NCBI RefSeq assembly: GCF_030269925.1 | Contig: NC_085133.1 | Span: forward strand, 7,336,001-7,400,000 | DNA: 64,000 bases | Direction of reading: 5' to 3' | DNA from: Bombyx mori | Lineage: Eukaryota > Arthropoda > Insecta > Lepidoptera > Bombycidae | In this document: one piece after another, positions 4,088 through 35,999 of the stretch | Layout of the letters: each line of letters starts with the position of its first letter | Numbering within the stretch: the first letter of the stretch is position 1 | Program-made: the position numbers and the translations under genes | The notes under the pieces: model-generated | Database searches by the model: none | What the model saw: the letters and a program-made list of their open reading frames with translations, nothing else | What the model was told of the DNA's origin: nothing

Positions 4088-4100
4088 TAATGTATCGTCT
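4088..4100. repeat. target-site duplication, left copy
   Basis: TAATGTATCGTCT, 13 bp, directly followed by the poly(T) that is the poly(A) tail of the minus-strand LINE. It is repeated exactly at 10420-10432. The pair fixes both ends of the element. Confidence 0.92.
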
Positions 4101-4435
4101 TTTTTTTTTTTTTTTTTTTTTTTCGGGGGGAAATCCTCATGGACTACCTTCGCCTAGGGAAAAGCGAAGGGGCGTGCCGGACTCCTACCGGCTAAAACCA
4201 CCCCGGTGTCCACCCACACGTGCGCGCAGGGCCGCGGGAATCCAAAATTCTTCCGCAGCCCCACACCAGTGCTGGCCCGGTCTATCCAGGCCTCGTCTCC
4301 TGCACGGAGTAGTGAGGCGTTCAGCTACTCCGTGCATCGCCTCAGAGGCACGCGCCGACACCCGCATGCGCCTCCGTCTCAGGTCCATCGAATAGGGGGC
4401 GAGGGCTTTCCCAAGTCCCTCGCCCCTGGACCCAT
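4101..4435 (-). other. 3' UTR and poly(A) tail of R1-clade LINE
   Basis: Between the ORF2 stop and the target duplication lie about 312 bp of GC-rich sequence and a 23-nt A tail (T run at 4101-4123). In this clade the 3' UTR is recognised by the ORF2 protein to begin target-primed reverse transcription. No AATAAA is obvious directly before the tail, so the A tail could be element-encoded or added at integration. Confidence 0.75.
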
Positions 4436-7400
4436 TCATGGGGGGCGGAAAAGGGCATTGTCCGCCCTTGTTCTGCGCCCGGTGCGCCTTCTGCGGCCGG
4501 GAAAGGGAGTCGAGATCTCCCTCTCCCGTTCTGCAGTTTCCTTCTGCGACATCACGTCCTCGCAGAAGGACACCACCGCGTCCCACGACTCTGCGCTGCC
4601 GACCATCCTCCGCACTACGGCCGGCAGCGACAGATCGCTTCCTACTTCATTTGTGAGGACACGGCGCTGCTCCTCCCAAGCTACACACTCGGCGAGCGTG
4701 TGTTGCGCCGTGTCCTCCCCGCAGTGGACGCAGTGGTGGCACCGAGCGTCCGGCTCCCTGTCTATGCGGCACAGGTACTTGCCGAAGCAACCGTGCCCCG
4801 ACAGCACCTGTGTCACCCTAAACGACAGGGATCCGTGCCTTCTCCCGAGCCAGTCGTCGAGTACTGGCCGGATCGCCTCGACGGTTGCGAGGCCGGCGGT
4901 AGGGCGCAGAAGCCTTTGCCGCCATTCCTCCACCAAGGCCAGACGGAGCTCCTCTCGGCGCAGCGCGATCTGCCGCTGCACCAGCCTCGAGCCCCGTGCC
5001 CGCTCTTCCTCGCGCCATCGATATAATGACGCGAGTACTTTCGCCTCTAGGTCCCAGGGCGGGGATCCGGCCAGGACGCAAGCCGCCTCGTAGGAAATCG
5101 TGCGGTACCCGCGGATGACTCTGACGGCCATCACCCTCTGCGGCTTACGCAGAATGGCGAGTGTGCTGGCCGTCATGTCCATCGCCCACACAGGGGCCCC
5201 ATACAGGGCCATGGACCGCACGATTCCCACGTACAACCGCCTACAGGCGGCGCTCGGGCCCCCCAAATTGGGAAGCAACGTTGAAAGCGCGCCCGCTGCA
5301 CCCATCAGCTTGGGCACCAGCCGCCGGAAGTGGGGCCCGAATTCCCATCGGCTGTCGAGCACCAATCCCAGATACTTCATGGTGGACTCGACAGCTATCC
5401 GGGTCCCACTTACCACGATGTGTGATCCCGGCGCCGGCGCACGTCGGGGGCCATGAAACACCATAGCCTCCGACTTGTTTAGGGCCACCTCCAGGCCCAG
5501 GCGCCGGATGCGGTTCACCACCAGTGACACCGCAGCCGCGGCTATCAACGTCGCTTCCCTGTGCGAGCTCCCCCGGGCAGTGACAAGCGTGTCGTCCGCA
5601 TAACACGTCAAGTTGGCGCCCGACGGGAGCTCGCCTCTCAGCACCCAGTCGTAGCCGATGTTCCACAGGAGCGGTCCCAAGACCGATCCCTGTGGAACAC
5701 CGCACGACATGAGGTGCCGACCGGCACCGTCACGTCCCCGATAAGTGACGCATCTACCCTCCAGATAAGCCCCTACCGTGCGGCGGAGGTAGGGAGGCAC
5801 GCGATGGTATTTCAGAGCCTCCCGAATACAACTCCAGGGTAGGGTGTTGAAAGCGTTGGAGATGTCTAAAGACACCGCCAGTACCACCCCACCCCGGGAC
5901 ACCGTCTCCTCCGCCAGGGCCCTCACGCGCATGATGGCGTCTATGGTGGAGCGCCCCCGACGAAAACCAAATTGGTTGTCATCCAGGTCCGGCCCCTCCC
6001 TGCACAAGTGGCTGACGAGGCGATCTGCGATAATGCGCTCAAAAAGTTTGCCCGCCTCATCGAGCAGCACTATGGGCCGATACGCGGACGGCGAGTCCGC
6101 GGGGCGCCCCTCCTTCCTGAGCAGGACCAGCTTCCCCTCCTTCCATACACTAGGAAACTGACCCTGCTCGAGACATGCCGTAAAGAGCCCCCTCAGCTGG
6201 GGCTCTAGCTCCTTCAGAGCCAGGACGAGTGCTCGACCAGGAACTCCGTCGGGTCCCGGGGCCGTGTTCTTAGACCGGAGTCGCGACACGGCCGCTCTCA
6301 TTTCTGCTTGCGTCACCTCGGGGACATCGGTGCTTTCCTCTTCTCGAGAGTCTGTGGCTGAGGGTGAAGCCATCGCCGGGGAAACGTATTCCGCTCGCTC
6401 AGGGAAGAGGGCCGATACAACCGCTTCTAGCAACTGGGGTTGCATGCTTTGCGCCAGTGGAGGCGCCCAGGCACGCAACTTGCCCCGTACCCAACGGTAG
6501 GGGCGCCCCCACGGATCCCGATCTAGGGACCCCAGCAGCTCCTCCCTGGCACGCGACTTAGAGTCGCCGATGGCCAGCCACAGAGTCTCCTTAGACGCGC
6601 GGTACGCCTCATACAGCGCGTCTTCCTCGACGGAATCCCGTCGACGTCGTCTCCGGTATCGCGTGTACCGGCGGCGAGCCGCGACGCACTCAACGCGCAG
6701 CCGCGCGATCTCGTCGGTCCACCAGTACACCTGGCGCCTTGCGGACTGTTGGTGGACACGGGGCATGGACGCGTCGCAGATCTGCGTCATCGCCCCTCGA
6801 AACCACAGCGCCACCGCTTCGACGTCGACGGGACTGTTCATTGTCGACTCCCAAATCCAGGACTGGACTAAGGCAGCTTCCTCGAGTAGCTCCTCGTCGA
6901 TGCGCTTAAGTGCCCAGCGTGGGCCGTCGTTAATCGGGGCGGTTGGCTGGCGGCCGCTCGCGGTCTGGGCAGAGACGTCGAACCGGATATACCGATGGTC
7001 CGACAGCGTCTCCACCTCCACGGCGACACGCCAGTCGCGGACTCGGCTGGCGACAGAGGGGCTAGCAAACGAGACGTCCACTATCGAGCCGCCCCGCTGC
7101 CGCACGCACGTGTATTCCGAACCCCGATTCAGGACGACCAGACCAGTTGTCACCGCCCACTCTTCTAGCACCTCGCCCCGATGGTCAGTGACCGGAGATC
7201 CCCACGCCGATGATTTGGCGTTGAGATCCCCGAGCACCAGAACGGGACGAGGGTGATAGCGGCCTACGACGGCGCCCAACTCGACGAGGAACCCCTCAAA
7301 GTCGGCGAGACTCTTGTTGGGAGAAAAATACGCCCCTACAATGCCGATACCGTCCGAGACCGCAGCAACCCAGCCGCGGCCCCGAGACGGGTTGATCAGA

Positions 7401-7582
7401 GTCTGGCCGATAATGGCCACCAAGCCGTCAATGCTCCCCAGCCAGTTGTCACGGGCGGGGACAAAGTACGGTTCGGCGACCGCAGCCACGTGGATCGACC
7501 ACTCTGCCATGCTCTGGAGTAAAATATCCTGAGCTCTGGCACAGTGATTGATATTGCCCTGGAGGAAATGGAATTGTGCCAT
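4436..7582 (-). CDS. ORF2: APE endonuclease / reverse transcriptase
   Basis: About 1,048 residues if translation starts at the UAAUG methionine (7582); an in-frame AUG three codons upstream at 7591 gives 1,051. N-terminal apurinic-like endonuclease: GNINH near residue 12, AEPY near 39, GDLNAKS near 121 and the terminal SDH near 197. Reverse transcriptase, about residues 430-780: SLDISNAF (motif A) near 574, GVPQGSVLGP near 631, YADD near 664. A C-terminal CCHC knuckle (CVHC...H...C) sits near residue 955. The protein would nick the target, prime on the nick and copy element RNA. All catalytic motifs appear intact and there is no internal stop. Length and layout match R1-clade ORF2 proteins. 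Its translation is probably coupled to ORF1. Confidence 0.94.
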   Translation of the reverse strand: MAQFHFLQGNINHCARAQDILLQSMAEWSIHVAAVAEPYFVPARDNWLGSIDGLVAIIGQTLINPSRGRGWVAAVSDGIGIVGAYFSPNKSLADFEGFLVELGAVVGRYHPRPVLVLGDLNAKSSAWGSPVTDHRGEVLEEWAVTTGLVVLNRGSEYTCVRQRGGSIVDVSFASPSVASRVRDWRVAVEVETLSDHRYIRFDVSAQTASGRQPTAPINDGPRWALKRIDEELLEEAALVQSWIWESTMNSPVDVEAVALWFRGAMTQICDASMPRVHQQSARRQVYWWTDEIARLRVECVAARRRYTRYRRRRRRDSVEEDALYEAYRASKETLWLAIGDSKSRAREELLGSLDRDPWGRPYRWVRGKLRAWAPPLAQSMQPQLLEAVVSALFPERAEYVSPAMASPSATDSREEESTDVPEVTQAEMRAAVSRLRSKNTAPGPDGVPGRALVLALKELEPQLRGLFTACLEQGQFPSVWKEGKLVLLRKEGRPADSPSAYRPIVLLDEAGKLFERIIADRLVSHLCREGPDLDDNQFGFRRGRSTIDAIMRVRALAEETVSRGGVVLAVSLDISNAFNTLPWSCIREALKYHRVPPYLRRTVGAYLEGRCVTYRGRDGAGRHLMSCGVPQGSVLGPLLWNIGYDWVLRGELPSGANLTCYADDTLVTARGSSHREATLIAAAAVSLVVNRIRRLGLEVALNKSEAMVFHGPRRAPAPGSHIVVSGTRIAVESTMKYLGLVLDSRWEFGPHFRRLVPKLMGAAGALSTLLPNLGGPSAACRRLYVGIVRSMALYGAPVWAMDMTASTLAILRKPQRVMAVRVIRGYRTISYEAACVLAGSPPWDLEAKVLASLYRWREEERARGSRLVQRQIALRREELRLALVEEWRQRLLRPTAGLATVEAIRPVLDDWLGRRHGSLSFRVTQVLSGHGCFGKYLCRIDREPDARCHHCVHCGEDTAQHTLAECVAWEEQRRVLTNEVGSDLSLPAVVRRMVGSAESWDAVVSFCEDVMSQKETAEREREISTPFPGRRRRTGRRTRADNALFRPP

Positions 7583-7584
7583 TA
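7580..7584 (-). promoter_or_regulatory. UAAUG stop-start translational coupling site
   Basis: On the minus strand the ORF1 stop UAA (7584-7582) shares its last A with an AUG (7582-7580) in the ORF2 frame, giving UAAUG. This arrangement is known in the silkworm R1-clade element SART1, where ORF2 is made by termination-reinitiation. An earlier in-frame AUG at 7591 overlaps ORF1 by 10 nt. Seen: the exact overlap. Inferred: that the second AUG is the main start. Confidence 0.7.
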
Positions 7585-9756
7585 TTGACATTCCATTCCC
7601 TCGGCAACGGTCCTGGGCCGGGAGTCGGCTACGGAGCTACTAGCCTGCGGGGGTGGCGAGGTTTCCCCGGCAGGTTTTGAGTTCCTCTTCTTCTTCTTGG
7701 CCTTGCTGGCTGGTGCGCCACAGGCTCCTCCACCCAGCCTGTGTCCCGCTGGCTTCCCTGCAGCTGAACACAAGCTGCAGTTGAGCGCCGCGGAACACTG
7801 AGCCGCCTTGTGGCCGGGCTGACCGCAGCGATAACAAAGGTCACTGCGGTCAACTTCAGCGGTGCACTTTGCCCGGACGTGCCCCTTATCCAGGCACCGG
7901 AAACACCGCAAAGCCCGGGGCTGTAGAAGTTTCACCCTCGCTGCAACCCAGCCAACCAGCAATCTGCCGCTTAAGGCGATCTTTTTCGCCGACGCTACAG
8001 GGCACCGAACCCAGACCACGCCGAGTCCGGTGGCATCGGTGCGTATATCGCCGGCCCGCACCTTGTCCGATGGACACTCTCCACTTCGGGCAACGGCCGC
8101 TACCACCTCCTCAGAGGTCACGGAGTCATCCAGTCCAGCAATCCGCACCTCTGCGGTTTTCATTGGCCTGGAGACCCGGACGTCCTCGGGGCTGAGGACC
8201 TCCCTCATCTTGGCGGCCAGAGCGTCCGCCTTTTCGGCACTGCCACTCGTAGTACCAGCCACCTCGAACAACCGTGCACCCGTGGCAGCCTGCCTGTGGG
8301 TGACGGCCTGAAGACCAAGATCTGATAATTTGATCTTGGCCTTTGCTTCGGCGATGACCGACTGGTACGTTACGCCGCGCTCCGCAGCTCCGGGCTGTAG
8401 CGTGAGCGTCACAGCTTCGGAACGCGGAGCACGTATCTCCGGTCCTTTGCGACCGCCTTTGGCAGCCCGCCGCGCAGGCTGCGCAACCGCCTTTGCGGTT
8501 TGGCCGGGCGCATGCGTTGCTGCTGAGGCCGCCTTGGCGACCCTGCGTGCCTTCTTGCGGCCCACGACTGTAACCCAGGTCTCACCCTTAGACCCAGCAG
8601 TCGTGGGCTGATCGCTCGATGGGGCTCCCTCGACGGGCTTTTTGACACCCTCCGCGGGCTTCCCCTCCCTAGGCTTAGGTCTCGGCGGCTCCTCAGCCCT
8701 CCGCCGTGTATCGGCCGCTAGTGGCGGACGGAGGATTTCCGCAGGGAGGCGCCGAGAAATTGCCTCCATACGAGCATTGACCATGCTCCCGCACTGGAGC
8801 ATACAGAGCCGGACAATGCGCTCGACCTCGTCGTCGGTATGAGTGCTTGTCGGTCTCGGTGCGGGAGCCGGGGTCACTACCGATGCGGCATCAGTGGACG
8901 TACGCCGCTGCTGCTGCTCGCTCAACGCAGTGACTCGTCGCCGGAGGTCCTCCATATCATTTCGGAGACGGCTGTTTTCCTCCTGCAACTTCGCAACCTC
9001 GTCAGAGGCCGTCCTGTTGAGGAGGATGCCAATCGCCTCCTTAATGTCCGCGGCAGCTTCTTTCAGACCGCGGGTAAACGTGCCCTTCAGGCTGCCGGAT
9101 TTGGTGGCAACCTTCAGGACTAAGTCCACCCCGTCCAAGGCAAGCTGACTTAGGGCCACCGCAGATGGTTCCCCCCCTTCCGCCGCTAGAGTAGCGCGTC
9201 GCTCGCGTGCGCGTCGGGCCATTTCCGACACTTCGTCGGCCGCGACAGCTTTGCGCTGCTCTCTTCGGGCGGCGTTGATCTCCGCCTTTGAGCTCCCTAG
9301 CGAGGCACAGCTCTCGCCACCAGGGTCCTCGGTAGTGACCCCCATGTCACTATCTGCTTTGCTGGCAGCCGGAGTATTGGAGCACACGAACCTACCCTGT
9401 GCGTTCCTCCGCGGCCGTGAAGCACTCACTCCTCTCGAAGCCTGCCGACCTCTCCTCGTGGTCGGTAATTTCTTGGGGGGCAGCAAGCCTTCCTCATCTG
9501 AGGACAGATCCACCGACCCATCTCCCACTGGAGCATTGTCGCGTGAGCGTTTTCTAACGGAAGACGACCCACGCGGTCCTCCGTCAATATTTTCAAAATA
9601 ACTGCTTCCAGTAATATTATCAGCAACAGGGGCCTGGTCGCCTACTCCTGCGCGTCCATCGGTAACCAATTTATCACTCGCAGGCCCGGGTACCTGCGAG
9701 CGCCGGGCGTCAGCCGGGTCGCATGACAAATCTCTCTCATAGTTAGCCATTTTCAT
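7582..9756 (-). CDS. ORF1: gag-like nucleic-acid-binding protein with CCHC knuckles
   Basis: 724 residues from the first in-frame AUG at 9756; a second AUG two codons on (9750) has a better context (A at -3, G at +4). The frame stays open upstream to 9780 but only from a GUG. The N-terminal half is charged and low-complexity. A leucine/glutamate-rich stretch near residues 255-290 could be a coiled coil. The C-terminus has three zinc knuckles: CFRC-x4-H-x4-C, CYRC-x4-H-x4-C and a stretched third, CSLC...H...C, followed by a basic tail with KAKKKKR. This is the standard R1-clade ORF1, which binds element RNA and forms the RNP. It is uninterrupted and ends inside the first four codons of ORF2. 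Confidence 0.9.
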   Translation of the reverse strand: MKMANYERDLSCDPADARRSQVPGPASDKLVTDGRAGVGDQAPVADNITGSSYFENIDGGPRGSSSVRKRSRDNAPVGDGSVDLSSDEEGLLPPKKLPTTRRGRQASRGVSASRPRRNAQGRFVCSNTPAASKADSDMGVTTEDPGGESCASLGSSKAEINAARREQRKAVAADEVSEMARRARERRATLAAEGGEPSAVALSQLALDGVDLVLKVATKSGSLKGTFTRGLKEAAADIKEAIGILLNRTASDEVAKLQEENSRLRNDMEDLRRRVTALSEQQQRRTSTDAASVVTPAPAPRPTSTHTDDEVERIVRLCMLQCGSMVNARMEAISRRLPAEILRPPLAADTRRRAEEPPRPKPREGKPAEGVKKPVEGAPSSDQPTTAGSKGETWVTVVGRKKARRVAKAASAATHAPGQTAKAVAQPARRAAKGGRKGPEIRAPRSEAVTLTLQPGAAERGVTYQSVIAEAKAKIKLSDLGLQAVTHRQAATGARLFEVAGTTSGSAEKADALAAKMREVLSPEDVRVSRPMKTAEVRIAGLDDSVTSEEVVAAVARSGECPSDKVRAGDIRTDATGLGVVWVRCPVASAKKIALSGRLLVGWVAARVKLLQPRALRCFRCLDKGHVRAKCTAEVDRSDLCYRCGQPGHKAAQCSAALNCSLCSAAGKPAGHRLGGGACGAPASKAKKKKRNSKPAGETSPPPQASSSVADSRPRTVAEGMECQ

Positions 9757-9895: not shown

Positions 9896-9974
<79 letters not shown>

Positions 9975-10178: not shown

Positions 10179-10256
10179 TCTACCCCTCCTTGCTCCCTAG
10201 TCGTGTACTCTGCAGCTGCGCAGATAGAGAGCCCTCGGGAGCGACTCCTCCGCCCC

Positions 10257-10419
10257 GGCAGAAATTCGCCGTGGGCAACAATCTCCTCTTTCTCACCCCT
10301 CACGAGGAGATTGTTGCCCACGCCCAGGGTGCACCGGCCCAGCGCCTGCTCGTCCTCTCAAGAAAACAAAAGGACCAGCAGCCACTGAACACTCGGGGAG
10401 GTTTTCTGCCAGGCACCCC
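10257..10419 (-). ncRNA. HDV-like self-cleaving ribozyme at the element 5' terminus
   Basis: Sense-strand helices in HDV topology: P1 GGGGTGC (10419-10413) with GCACCCT (10332-10326), 7 bp, opening with a G-U wobble at the cleavage site as in HDV. P2 GGCAGAAA (10410-10403) with TTTCTGCC (10264-10257), 8 bp perfect. P3 ACC (10402-10400) with GGT (10335-10333). L3 begins TCCCC and holds an extra ~16-bp stem. P1.1 can pair GG at 10325-10324 with CC of L3. P4 is an 18-bp perfect stem (10321-10304 with 10288-10271). J4/2 is GGCGAA, with the presumed catalytic C at 10268. G1 is the first base after the target duplication, so cleavage would release an RNA with exactly the element's 5' end, as established for R2 and some other LINEs. 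Confidence 0.83.
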
Positions 10420-10432
10420 TAATGTATCGTCT
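10420..10432. repeat. target-site duplication, right copy
   Basis: Exact repeat of the 13 bp at 4088-4100. Its inner edge coincides with the first base of the ribozyme. Confidence 0.92.
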
Positions 10433-10824
10433 ACTTTATCTTAAACTTAATCAGTTGTGTTTAATTCCGAATCTTTAATTTTTTTAAATCTGAATCCATG
10501 TCTGCCTCTTGTAGACTCGTAGAACTTCGACCGTGTAGCAAGATGTCTGAATATTTATCGAACCGTTAGCGGCTTGAACATTTAATTCTATCAAAAGCAA
10601 TTACTATGGCTAAGTAATATCGTGCATTATTTTAAGTACCATATGGTTCATGTTTACTTAAATTTATGTGGTTTTAGATCTTGTTTATTACTGGTGGCTA
10701 TAAACACAATTGGACGTTCTTACAATAAAACGTCATAAGTATAATTGTTTGTACACGCTTGTATTTTAATAGCTATAAAGACTAACTCTTTGAGTTTGTG
10801 ATGGAATTCTCTAAAATTAATTAC

Positions 10825-35852: not shown

Positions 35853-35999
35853 CGAGTTTTTTAATTTCTCAATCGCGCAAAAGTTAATTCAAATTTGTAT
35901 GGAGTTGTAACACTTCTCTTCGTTTGCCGCTAGGGGCGCTGTTCAAACTCCATACAAATTTGAGTTAACTTTTACGCGATCGAGAAGTTAAAATACTCG
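35853..35999. repeat. foldback MITE with ~50-bp arms
   Basis: Left arm 35853-35906 and right arm 35953-35999 are near-perfect reverse complements (AATTCAAATTTGTATGGAGTT facing AACTCCATACAAATTTGAGTT, then CGAGAAGTT at the ends). The ~45-nt loop has GCCGCTAGGGGCGCTG. No transposase. Confidence 0.68.

What the first reader, a model, noticed from the sequence alone, without database searches (positions are those of the whole stretch)
10257..10419. HDV-like ribozyme whose predicted cut site is the LINE/target junction
The first 163 nt of the R1-clade element fit every helix of the HDV fold: P1 7 bp with the G-U pair at the cleavage site, P2 8 bp perfect, P3 3 bp, possible P1.1, P4 18 bp perfect, and J4/2 GGCGAA with the catalytic-type C. 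L3 carries an unusual extra stem of about 16 bp. G1 is the first base after the 13-bp duplication, found independently of the fold, so two lines of evidence meet at one nucleotide. HDV-like ribozymes that process co-transcribed LINE RNA are known (R2, some others). An example with an enlarged L3 in a non-rDNA R1-clade element may be new.
Basis: partly seen in the sequence, partly recalled or inferred. Interest (0 to 1): 0.92.

Follow-up and report, generated by a model that had tools for sequence, protein, structure and literature searches.

The report
Telomere-seeking LINE with delta-like ribozyme
In what is likely a moth genome, a jumping element found partly in telomere repeats begins, in 23 of the 28 copies examined, with a sequence that matches the fold of the hepatitis-delta-like self-cutting RNA and is predicted to cut itself free exactly where each copy starts; the kind is known, but this one carries an extra hairpin in its active-site loop.

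Summary
Window 10419-10257 (minus) has every part of an HDV-like ribozyme: P1 7 bp with G1-U94, P2 8 bp, P3 3 bp, possible P1.1, P4 18 bp, J4/2 GGCGAA with C at 10268, and a 48-nt hairpin inside L3. A strict descriptor, written after seeing it, hits the window once, never in 19.2 Mb of shuffled windows or 20,000 local shuffles, and in 34 fetched loci only at the first base of 23 family copies. Of 28 family loci 25 start at G1; 12 of the 16 non-telomeric ones abut a target duplication directly. In the diverged copy L032, 0 of 50 core positions changed against 19 of 113 others. HDV-like ribozymes in 'telomere-specific SART' are already published (passage of PMC11620745); the L3 hairpin is the unusual part. 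Cleavage is untested, Rfam finds no HDV family, P1/P2 covariation is lacking, and a nested alternative fold competes. Verdict: new variant of a known kind.

The parts
10257..10419 (-). HDV-like ribozyme, first 163 nt of the LINE
   Evidence: Strict descriptor hit, unique in window; same hit at the 5' end of 23 of 28 family loci
10413..10419 (-). P1 5' strand, G1 at 10419 = predicted first base after cleavage
   Evidence: Pairs with 10326-10332 incl. G1-U94
10326..10332 (-). P1 3' strand
10403..10410 (-). P2 5' strand
   Evidence: 8 bp with 10257-10264; one P2 pair broken in L026 and in L028, which is identical to it
10257..10264 (-). P2 3' strand
10400..10402 (-). P3 5' strand (pairs with 10333-10335)
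10394..10399 (-). L3 core UCCCCG; C22,C23 can form P1.1 with 10324-10325
   Evidence: unchanged in the 7 rows of alignment A1
10340..10387 (-). Extra hairpin inside L3, between the L3 core and the P3 3' strand
   Evidence: Predicted stem; in L032 two internal G-G mismatches become A-U and C-G while one terminal pair is lost
10304..10321 (-). P4 5' strand
   Evidence: 18 bp; the substitutions seen in the 7 rows of A1 keep a standard pair
10271..10288 (-). P4 3' strand
10265..10270 (-). J4/2 GGCGAA with candidate catalytic C at 10268
   Evidence: C152 kept in the 7 rows of A1; L031 has a change at the next base
10420..10432 (-). Target-site duplication, 5' copy
4088..4100 (-). Target-site duplication, 3' copy, after the poly(A) tail
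9896..9971 (-). Internal poly(A) tract in the 5' UTR (T run on + strand)
7582..9756 (-). ORF1 with CCHC zinc knuckle, from its first ATG
4436..7582 (-). ORF2 (endonuclease, reverse transcriptase), likely start at the ATG that overlaps the ORF1 stop in TAATG
   Evidence: that M is an invariant column in the 8-row alignment A3

Best explanation
The first 163 nt of this SART-like LINE match the HDV-like self-cleaving ribozyme fold and are predicted to cut a co-transcript exactly between target sequence and element. Shown by sequence: the complete fold, its place at the first base of 23 of 28 loci, G1 as the start of 25 of 28 loci, and telomere-like targets. Inferred: the element would be transcribed from outside (including from telomeric repeat), the ribozyme would remove the upstream target RNA and leave a 5'-OH G1, and reverse transcription that runs to this end would give the uniform 5' junctions seen. 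The L3 hairpin is likely a peripheral domain that leaves the catalytic core in place and may stabilise it. Each full-length copy carries the ribozyme along, so it would work at any site where it lands.
For: Complete motif: 0 hits in 19.2 Mb of shuffled windows and in 20,000 local shuffles; 23 hits in 34 loci (244,719 bases, both strands), all at G1 of the family and none elsewhere. 25 of 28 family loci start at G1; of the 16 non-telomeric ones 12 have a duplication abutting G1 with no extra base. Two copies truncated inside the ribozyme (L034, L036) also have duplications, so a full-length start is not forced by insertion itself. L032: 0 of 50 core positions changed against 19 of 113 (Fisher one-sided 0.0006, one lineage); its P4 changes keep pairing, one of them two-sided, U100-A148 to C-G. 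A 592-nt internally deleted copy (L010) keeps the ribozyme and the 3' end and has a 14-bp duplication, like the R2 short internally deleted elements mentioned in PMC3774820 (passage).
Against: No cleavage data. No Rfam HDV match. P1, P3 and P1.1 never vary in A1 and P2 varies only by one broken pair, so these helices have no covariation; the whole-structure measures are reached by 174 of 500 shuffles. The predicted nested optimum (-94.5 kcal/mol) extends P1 and leaves P2 unformed; P2+P3+L3+P4 alone scores -73.6, with P1 not countable beside it. A 56%-identical family with SART-like junctions shows no hit of a relaxed descriptor and only three weak hits of a laxer one at its 5' end (score 14-15 against 25). 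Exact G1 starts are also what a promoter at +1 would give. The abstract of PMC3774820 reports variable 5' junctions where R2 RNA is cut at its own 5' end; here they are uniform.
Confidence: 0.85

Rival explanations
1. The uniform 5' end is set by an internal promoter that starts transcription at G1; the structured 5' end serves RNA stability, packaging or translation and does not cut.
For: 25 of 28 loci start at G1, which a +1 start would also give; the predicted nested fold leaves P2 unformed.
Against: It does not explain why the pseudoknotted HDV core with the J4/2 C is complete and unchanged in the diverged copy L032.
Confidence: 0.08
2. Dual system as reported for L1Tc (passage of PMC8256844): the same stretch is both internal promoter and ribozyme. 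This is compatible with the best explanation.
For: L1Tc precedent; copies with both ORFs open lie at unrelated sites and must be expressed somehow.
Against: No promoter evidence was sought here.
Confidence: 0.2
3. A decayed or misfolding ribozyme that the family no longer needs.
For: Alternative fold; one P2 pair broken in L026 and L028, a J4/2 change in L031.
Against: 16 of the 25 loci with a G1 start are identical over the first 166 nt, and 18 of 28 loci keep both ORFs open at full length.
Confidence: 0.05
4. Chance fold.
For: Loose helix-only criteria give 201 places in the window.
Against: Strict motif 0 times in shuffles and only at G1 of family copies in 34 loci.
Confidence: 0.01

Closest known systems
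HDV-like ribozyme of telomere-specific SART elements (Ruminski et al. 2011, as listed in a passage of PMC11620745)
   Different: The primary paper is not held, so structure and species could not be compared; it is not excluded that this very element is among its examples, or that its L3 is enlarged too
R2 ribozymes (PMC3774820, abstract and sections 12, 13, 15, 16, 18, 19 read)
   Same: 5' position, cut at the junction in Drosophila R2, catalytic C, release from a co-transcript
   Different: R2 inserts in 28S rDNA; many R2 have a long J1/2 and cut upstream in the 28S. Here J1/2 is 2 nt, the long insert is in L3 and the predicted cut is at the junction. L3 spacing is noted as deviant in one R2 (Nasonia vitripennis)
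SART1Bm (PMC7265360, abstract, sections 3 and 5 and passages read)
   Same: Insertion between T and A of TTAGG with poly(A) joined to AGG, two ORFs; UAAUG stop-start (title of a reference listed in PMC2881922)
   Different: SART1Bm is 6.7 kb and needs at least three TTAGG repeats; this element is 6.3 kb and also uses dispersed TTAGG-like sites
drz-Agam-2-1 (PMC4908430, abstract and passages read)
   Same: Large HDV-like ribozyme with a peripheral helix
   Different: Its helix P1.2 is in J1/2, here the helix is in L3

Membership tests
HDV-like ribozyme | Nested double pseudoknot P1-P2-P3-(P1.1)-P4 | tested here: met
   Descriptor and pair table; sequence level only
HDV-like ribozyme | Catalytic C in J4/2 followed by A | tested here: met
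   GGCGAA, C at 10268, kept in 7 of 7 rows of A1
HDV-like ribozyme | L3 core with conserved G | tested here: met
   UCCCCG at 10399-10394, then a long hairpin in place of a short loop
HDV-like ribozyme | Compensatory changes in P1 and P2 | tested here: inconclusive
   No variation in P1, one broken P2 pair
HDV-like ribozyme | Mg2+-dependent self-cleavage 5' of G1 | not testable with these tools
   needs a bench assay
Rfam HDV ribozyme families (a detection test, not part of the structural definition) | Score above threshold with an Rfam HDV model | tested here: not met
   No HDV family among the matches; the enlarged L3 may explain it, not tested. Membership of these particular families is not claimed
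SART (telomere-specific R1-clade LINE) | Insertion between T and A of TTAGG, poly(A) joined to (A)GG | tested here: met
   6 of 28 loci have both flanks of this kind, 3 more the 5' flank
SART (telomere-specific R1-clade LINE) | Insertion in telomeric repeat only | tested here: not met
   18 of 28 loci (16 with a G1 start, 2 truncated) are at dispersed sites; the nick sites that could be read resemble TTAGG repeat. Hence 'SART-like', not 'a SART'
SART (telomere-specific R1-clade LINE) | UAAUG ORF1/ORF2 coupling | tested here: met
   TAATG here and in the 56% family; sequence only
SART (telomere-specific R1-clade LINE) | Groups with SART in a reverse-transcriptase tree | not tested
   No protein named SART was among the listed hits (best 120 of 298)

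The most novel reading that the evidence does not exclude
This is an HDV-like ribozyme of a new architecture: a conserved helical domain is inserted in the active-site loop L3 between the conserved L3 G and the P3 3' strand, it releases a telomere-seeking LINE from read-through transcripts wherever it lands, and the uncapped product is then translated with help of the long poly(A) tract in the 5' UTR.
Probability: 0.25. Interest if true: 0.75.

Novelty: new variant of a known kind. Interest (0 to 1): 0.55.

Why it matters
In the papers I read, large variable inserts of HDV-like ribozymes lie in J1/2 and P4; a stem inside L3 would show that even the active-site loop tolerates a domain, and might explain why covariance-model scans miss such cases. 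The family has many nearly identical copies at mapped sites, so the link between RNA 5' end and DNA 5' junction can be tested directly, and its target range connects telomere-specific and dispersed R1-clade elements.

Tried and rejected
Relatives outside this genome: ORF2 against viral contigs (no pattern match), alignment A3 against genome contigs (45 pattern matches) and viral contigs (273 pattern matches), none of them confirmed by tblastn; the first 20 nt as an exact pattern found 0 in viral contigs and 0 in genome contigs. So no cross-species covariation could be made. The own-genome protein search for ORF2 relatives did not complete. A covariance model R1 was built, but this genome is not searched by models. 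Reading subtelomeric stretches gave one 56%-identical family (L040, L041, L042); its 5' end gave no convincing HDV fold. Considered and rejected: helix content alone as evidence (201 loose hits); reading the absence of G at -1 (0 of 25 G1-start loci) as ribozyme preference, because a copy's own -1 base is set after cleavage. Literature: searches for 'HDV-like ribozyme' with 'SART', for SART, R1 clade and ribozyme and for 'HDV-like ribozyme' with 'loop L3' each gave 0 papers; HDV, ribozyme and 'L3 loop' gave 2, seen as listing only and by title and abstract not on HDV L3. The SART statement came from a passage of PMC11620745. Ruminski 2011, Webb and Luptak 2011, Webb 2009 and Kojima 2005 are not held.

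Full report
Setting. The window is G000:C27:7336001-7400000 of a 461.7-Mb assembly in 30 contigs. Its Rfam matches are miRNA families that I recall as silkworm ones, and the best named protein matches are from Helicoverpa and Parnassius, so a moth is likely; no tool names the organism. The element lies on the minus strand, from G at 10419 to a poly(A) ending at 4101, with ORF1 (CCHC zinc knuckle) and ORF2 (endonuclease and reverse transcriptase). Solved relatives by sequence include LINE-1 and R2 proteins and the TRAS1 and R1Bm endonucleases.

Observation. J1/2 is 2 nt; L3 starts UCCCCG and then holds a hairpin of 48 nt (10387-10340) before the P3 3' strand. Rfam 15 reports no HDV family, at gathering scores for the window or at E up to 10 for 10200-10500.

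Chance. A loose helix-only descriptor hits 201 places in the 64 kb, both strands, so helices alone prove little. A strict descriptor (P1 7 pairs, P2 at least 6, P3 3, L3 YCCxxG, then GG for P1.1, then xxCxA in J4/2, then P4 at least 6), written with the candidate in view, hits the window once at its full level. 150 dinucleotide-shuffled windows (19.2 Mb, both strands) give 228, 11, 2 and 0 hits at the four successive levels, and 20,000 shuffles of the 400-nt region give 78, 3, 0 and 0. On 34 fetched loci (L009-L042, 244,719 bases, both strands) it hits 23 times, always at the first base of a family copy.

Copies. The first 180 nt match 29 places in the genome; two of them fall in one stretch, so 28 loci were read. 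25 of 28 start at G1. L030 has a damaged P1; L034 and L036 are truncated inside the ribozyme but flanked by duplications. Of 16 non-telomeric loci with a G1 start, 12 have a 13-16-nt duplication abutting G1, L013 has two extra bases, and L012, L023 and L035 have no duplication found. L032 and L033 share their 5' flank and are not independent. 16 of the 25 are identical over 166 nt. 18 of 28 loci keep ORF1 and ORF2 open at full length, which suggests a young family.

Conservation. Seven rows were aligned (A1): one of the 16 identical copies, and L025, L026, L027, L029, L031 and L032; L028 equals L026; L033 and L035 are rearranged inside the ribozyme and were left out, as were L030, L034 and L036. 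L032 is the most diverged: 0 of 50 core positions differ against 19 of 113 others (Fisher one-sided 0.0006); the core was defined by me as P1, P2, P3, L3 core, P1.1 and J4/2. The P4 changes in L025, L031 and L032 keep a standard pair, one of them two-sided. In the L3 hairpin of L032 two G-G mismatches become A-U and C-G, and one terminal pair is lost. Against: P1, P3 and P1.1 never vary, L026 breaks a P2 pair, L031 changes the J4/2 base after the C, and the whole-structure measures are reached by 174 of 500 shuffles.

Folding. The nested optimum of the 163 nt (-94.5 kcal/mol) extends P1 and leaves P2 open; P2+P3+L3+P4 alone scores -73.6, and the pseudoknot cannot be scored this way. Misfolding is a real possibility.

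Target. Nine loci have telomere-type 5' flanks (five perfect over 25 nt, four with 22 of 25), and six of these also have GGTTAGG after the poly(A). At the 15 non-telomeric sites with a duplication the eight bases before the nick resemble GTTAGGTT (63 of 120 matches, null mean 32.3, 0 of 20,000 draws), and the bases after it are A 14, G 11, G 10 of 15 (leading As can be confused with the poly(A)). PMC7265360 (abstract, sections 3 and 5, passages) gives the same junction for SART1Bm. The TAATG overlap of ORF1 stop and ORF2 start matches the UAAUG coupling in the title of a SART1 paper listed in PMC2881922. I therefore call the element SART-like; because 18 of 28 loci are not in telomeric repeat, I do not file it as a SART. 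A second family, 56% identical in ORF2, sits near the start of contig C4 and has TAATG too; a relaxed descriptor found nothing in six subtelomeric loci and a laxer one three weak hits at its 5' end.

Mechanism. Shown: fold, position, uniform starts, targets. Inferred: co-transcription from outside, self-cleavage before G1, use of the trimmed RNA as template. The R2 work (PMC3774820; abstract and sections 12, 13, 15, 16, 18, 19 read) is the model. A 5' UTR run of 17-100 A is present in 22 of 28 loci, 10 A in L025, none found in L010, L012, L013, L031 and L035; as an untested idea, it may help to translate an uncapped RNA.

Known or new. PMC11620745 (passage) lists HDV-like ribozymes in R2, R4, R6, RTE, telomere-specific SART, Baggins and L1Tc. 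This is thus of a known kind; the stem in L3 is the variant feature. Two searches of the held library for an L3 loop gave nothing on an enlarged L3, but the primary papers are not held, so I make no claim that it is absent from print.

Noticed in passing
9896-9971: A run of 76 T on the + strand is a poly(A) tract inside the 5' UTR of the element; 22 of 28 loci have a run of 17-100 A there.
   Followed up: partly
L010:301-892: A 592-nt internally deleted copy: the first 435 nt with the ribozyme fused to the last 157 nt, with poly(A) and a 14-bp duplication, like R2 short internally deleted elements.
   Followed up: partly
4436-7591: Very close ORF2 relatives are listed from Helicoverpa armigera (92% over 100% of the query) and Parnassius mnemosyne (91% over 67%, 94% over 61%), which is high for such distant insects; horizontal transfer could be tested.
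   Followed up: no
L037:1138-9997: The end of contig C6 reads as about 8.9 kb of perfect TTAGG repeat next to a 44%-identical ORF2 relative.
   Followed up: no
L012, L019; L016, L023, L035: Several insertions lie at the same place of other dispersed repeats: L012 and L019 in one, L016, L023 and L035 in another (flanks).
   Followed up: no
35884-35968: mir-2807 family matches on both strands of the same stretch, which must be close to palindromic.
   Followed up: no
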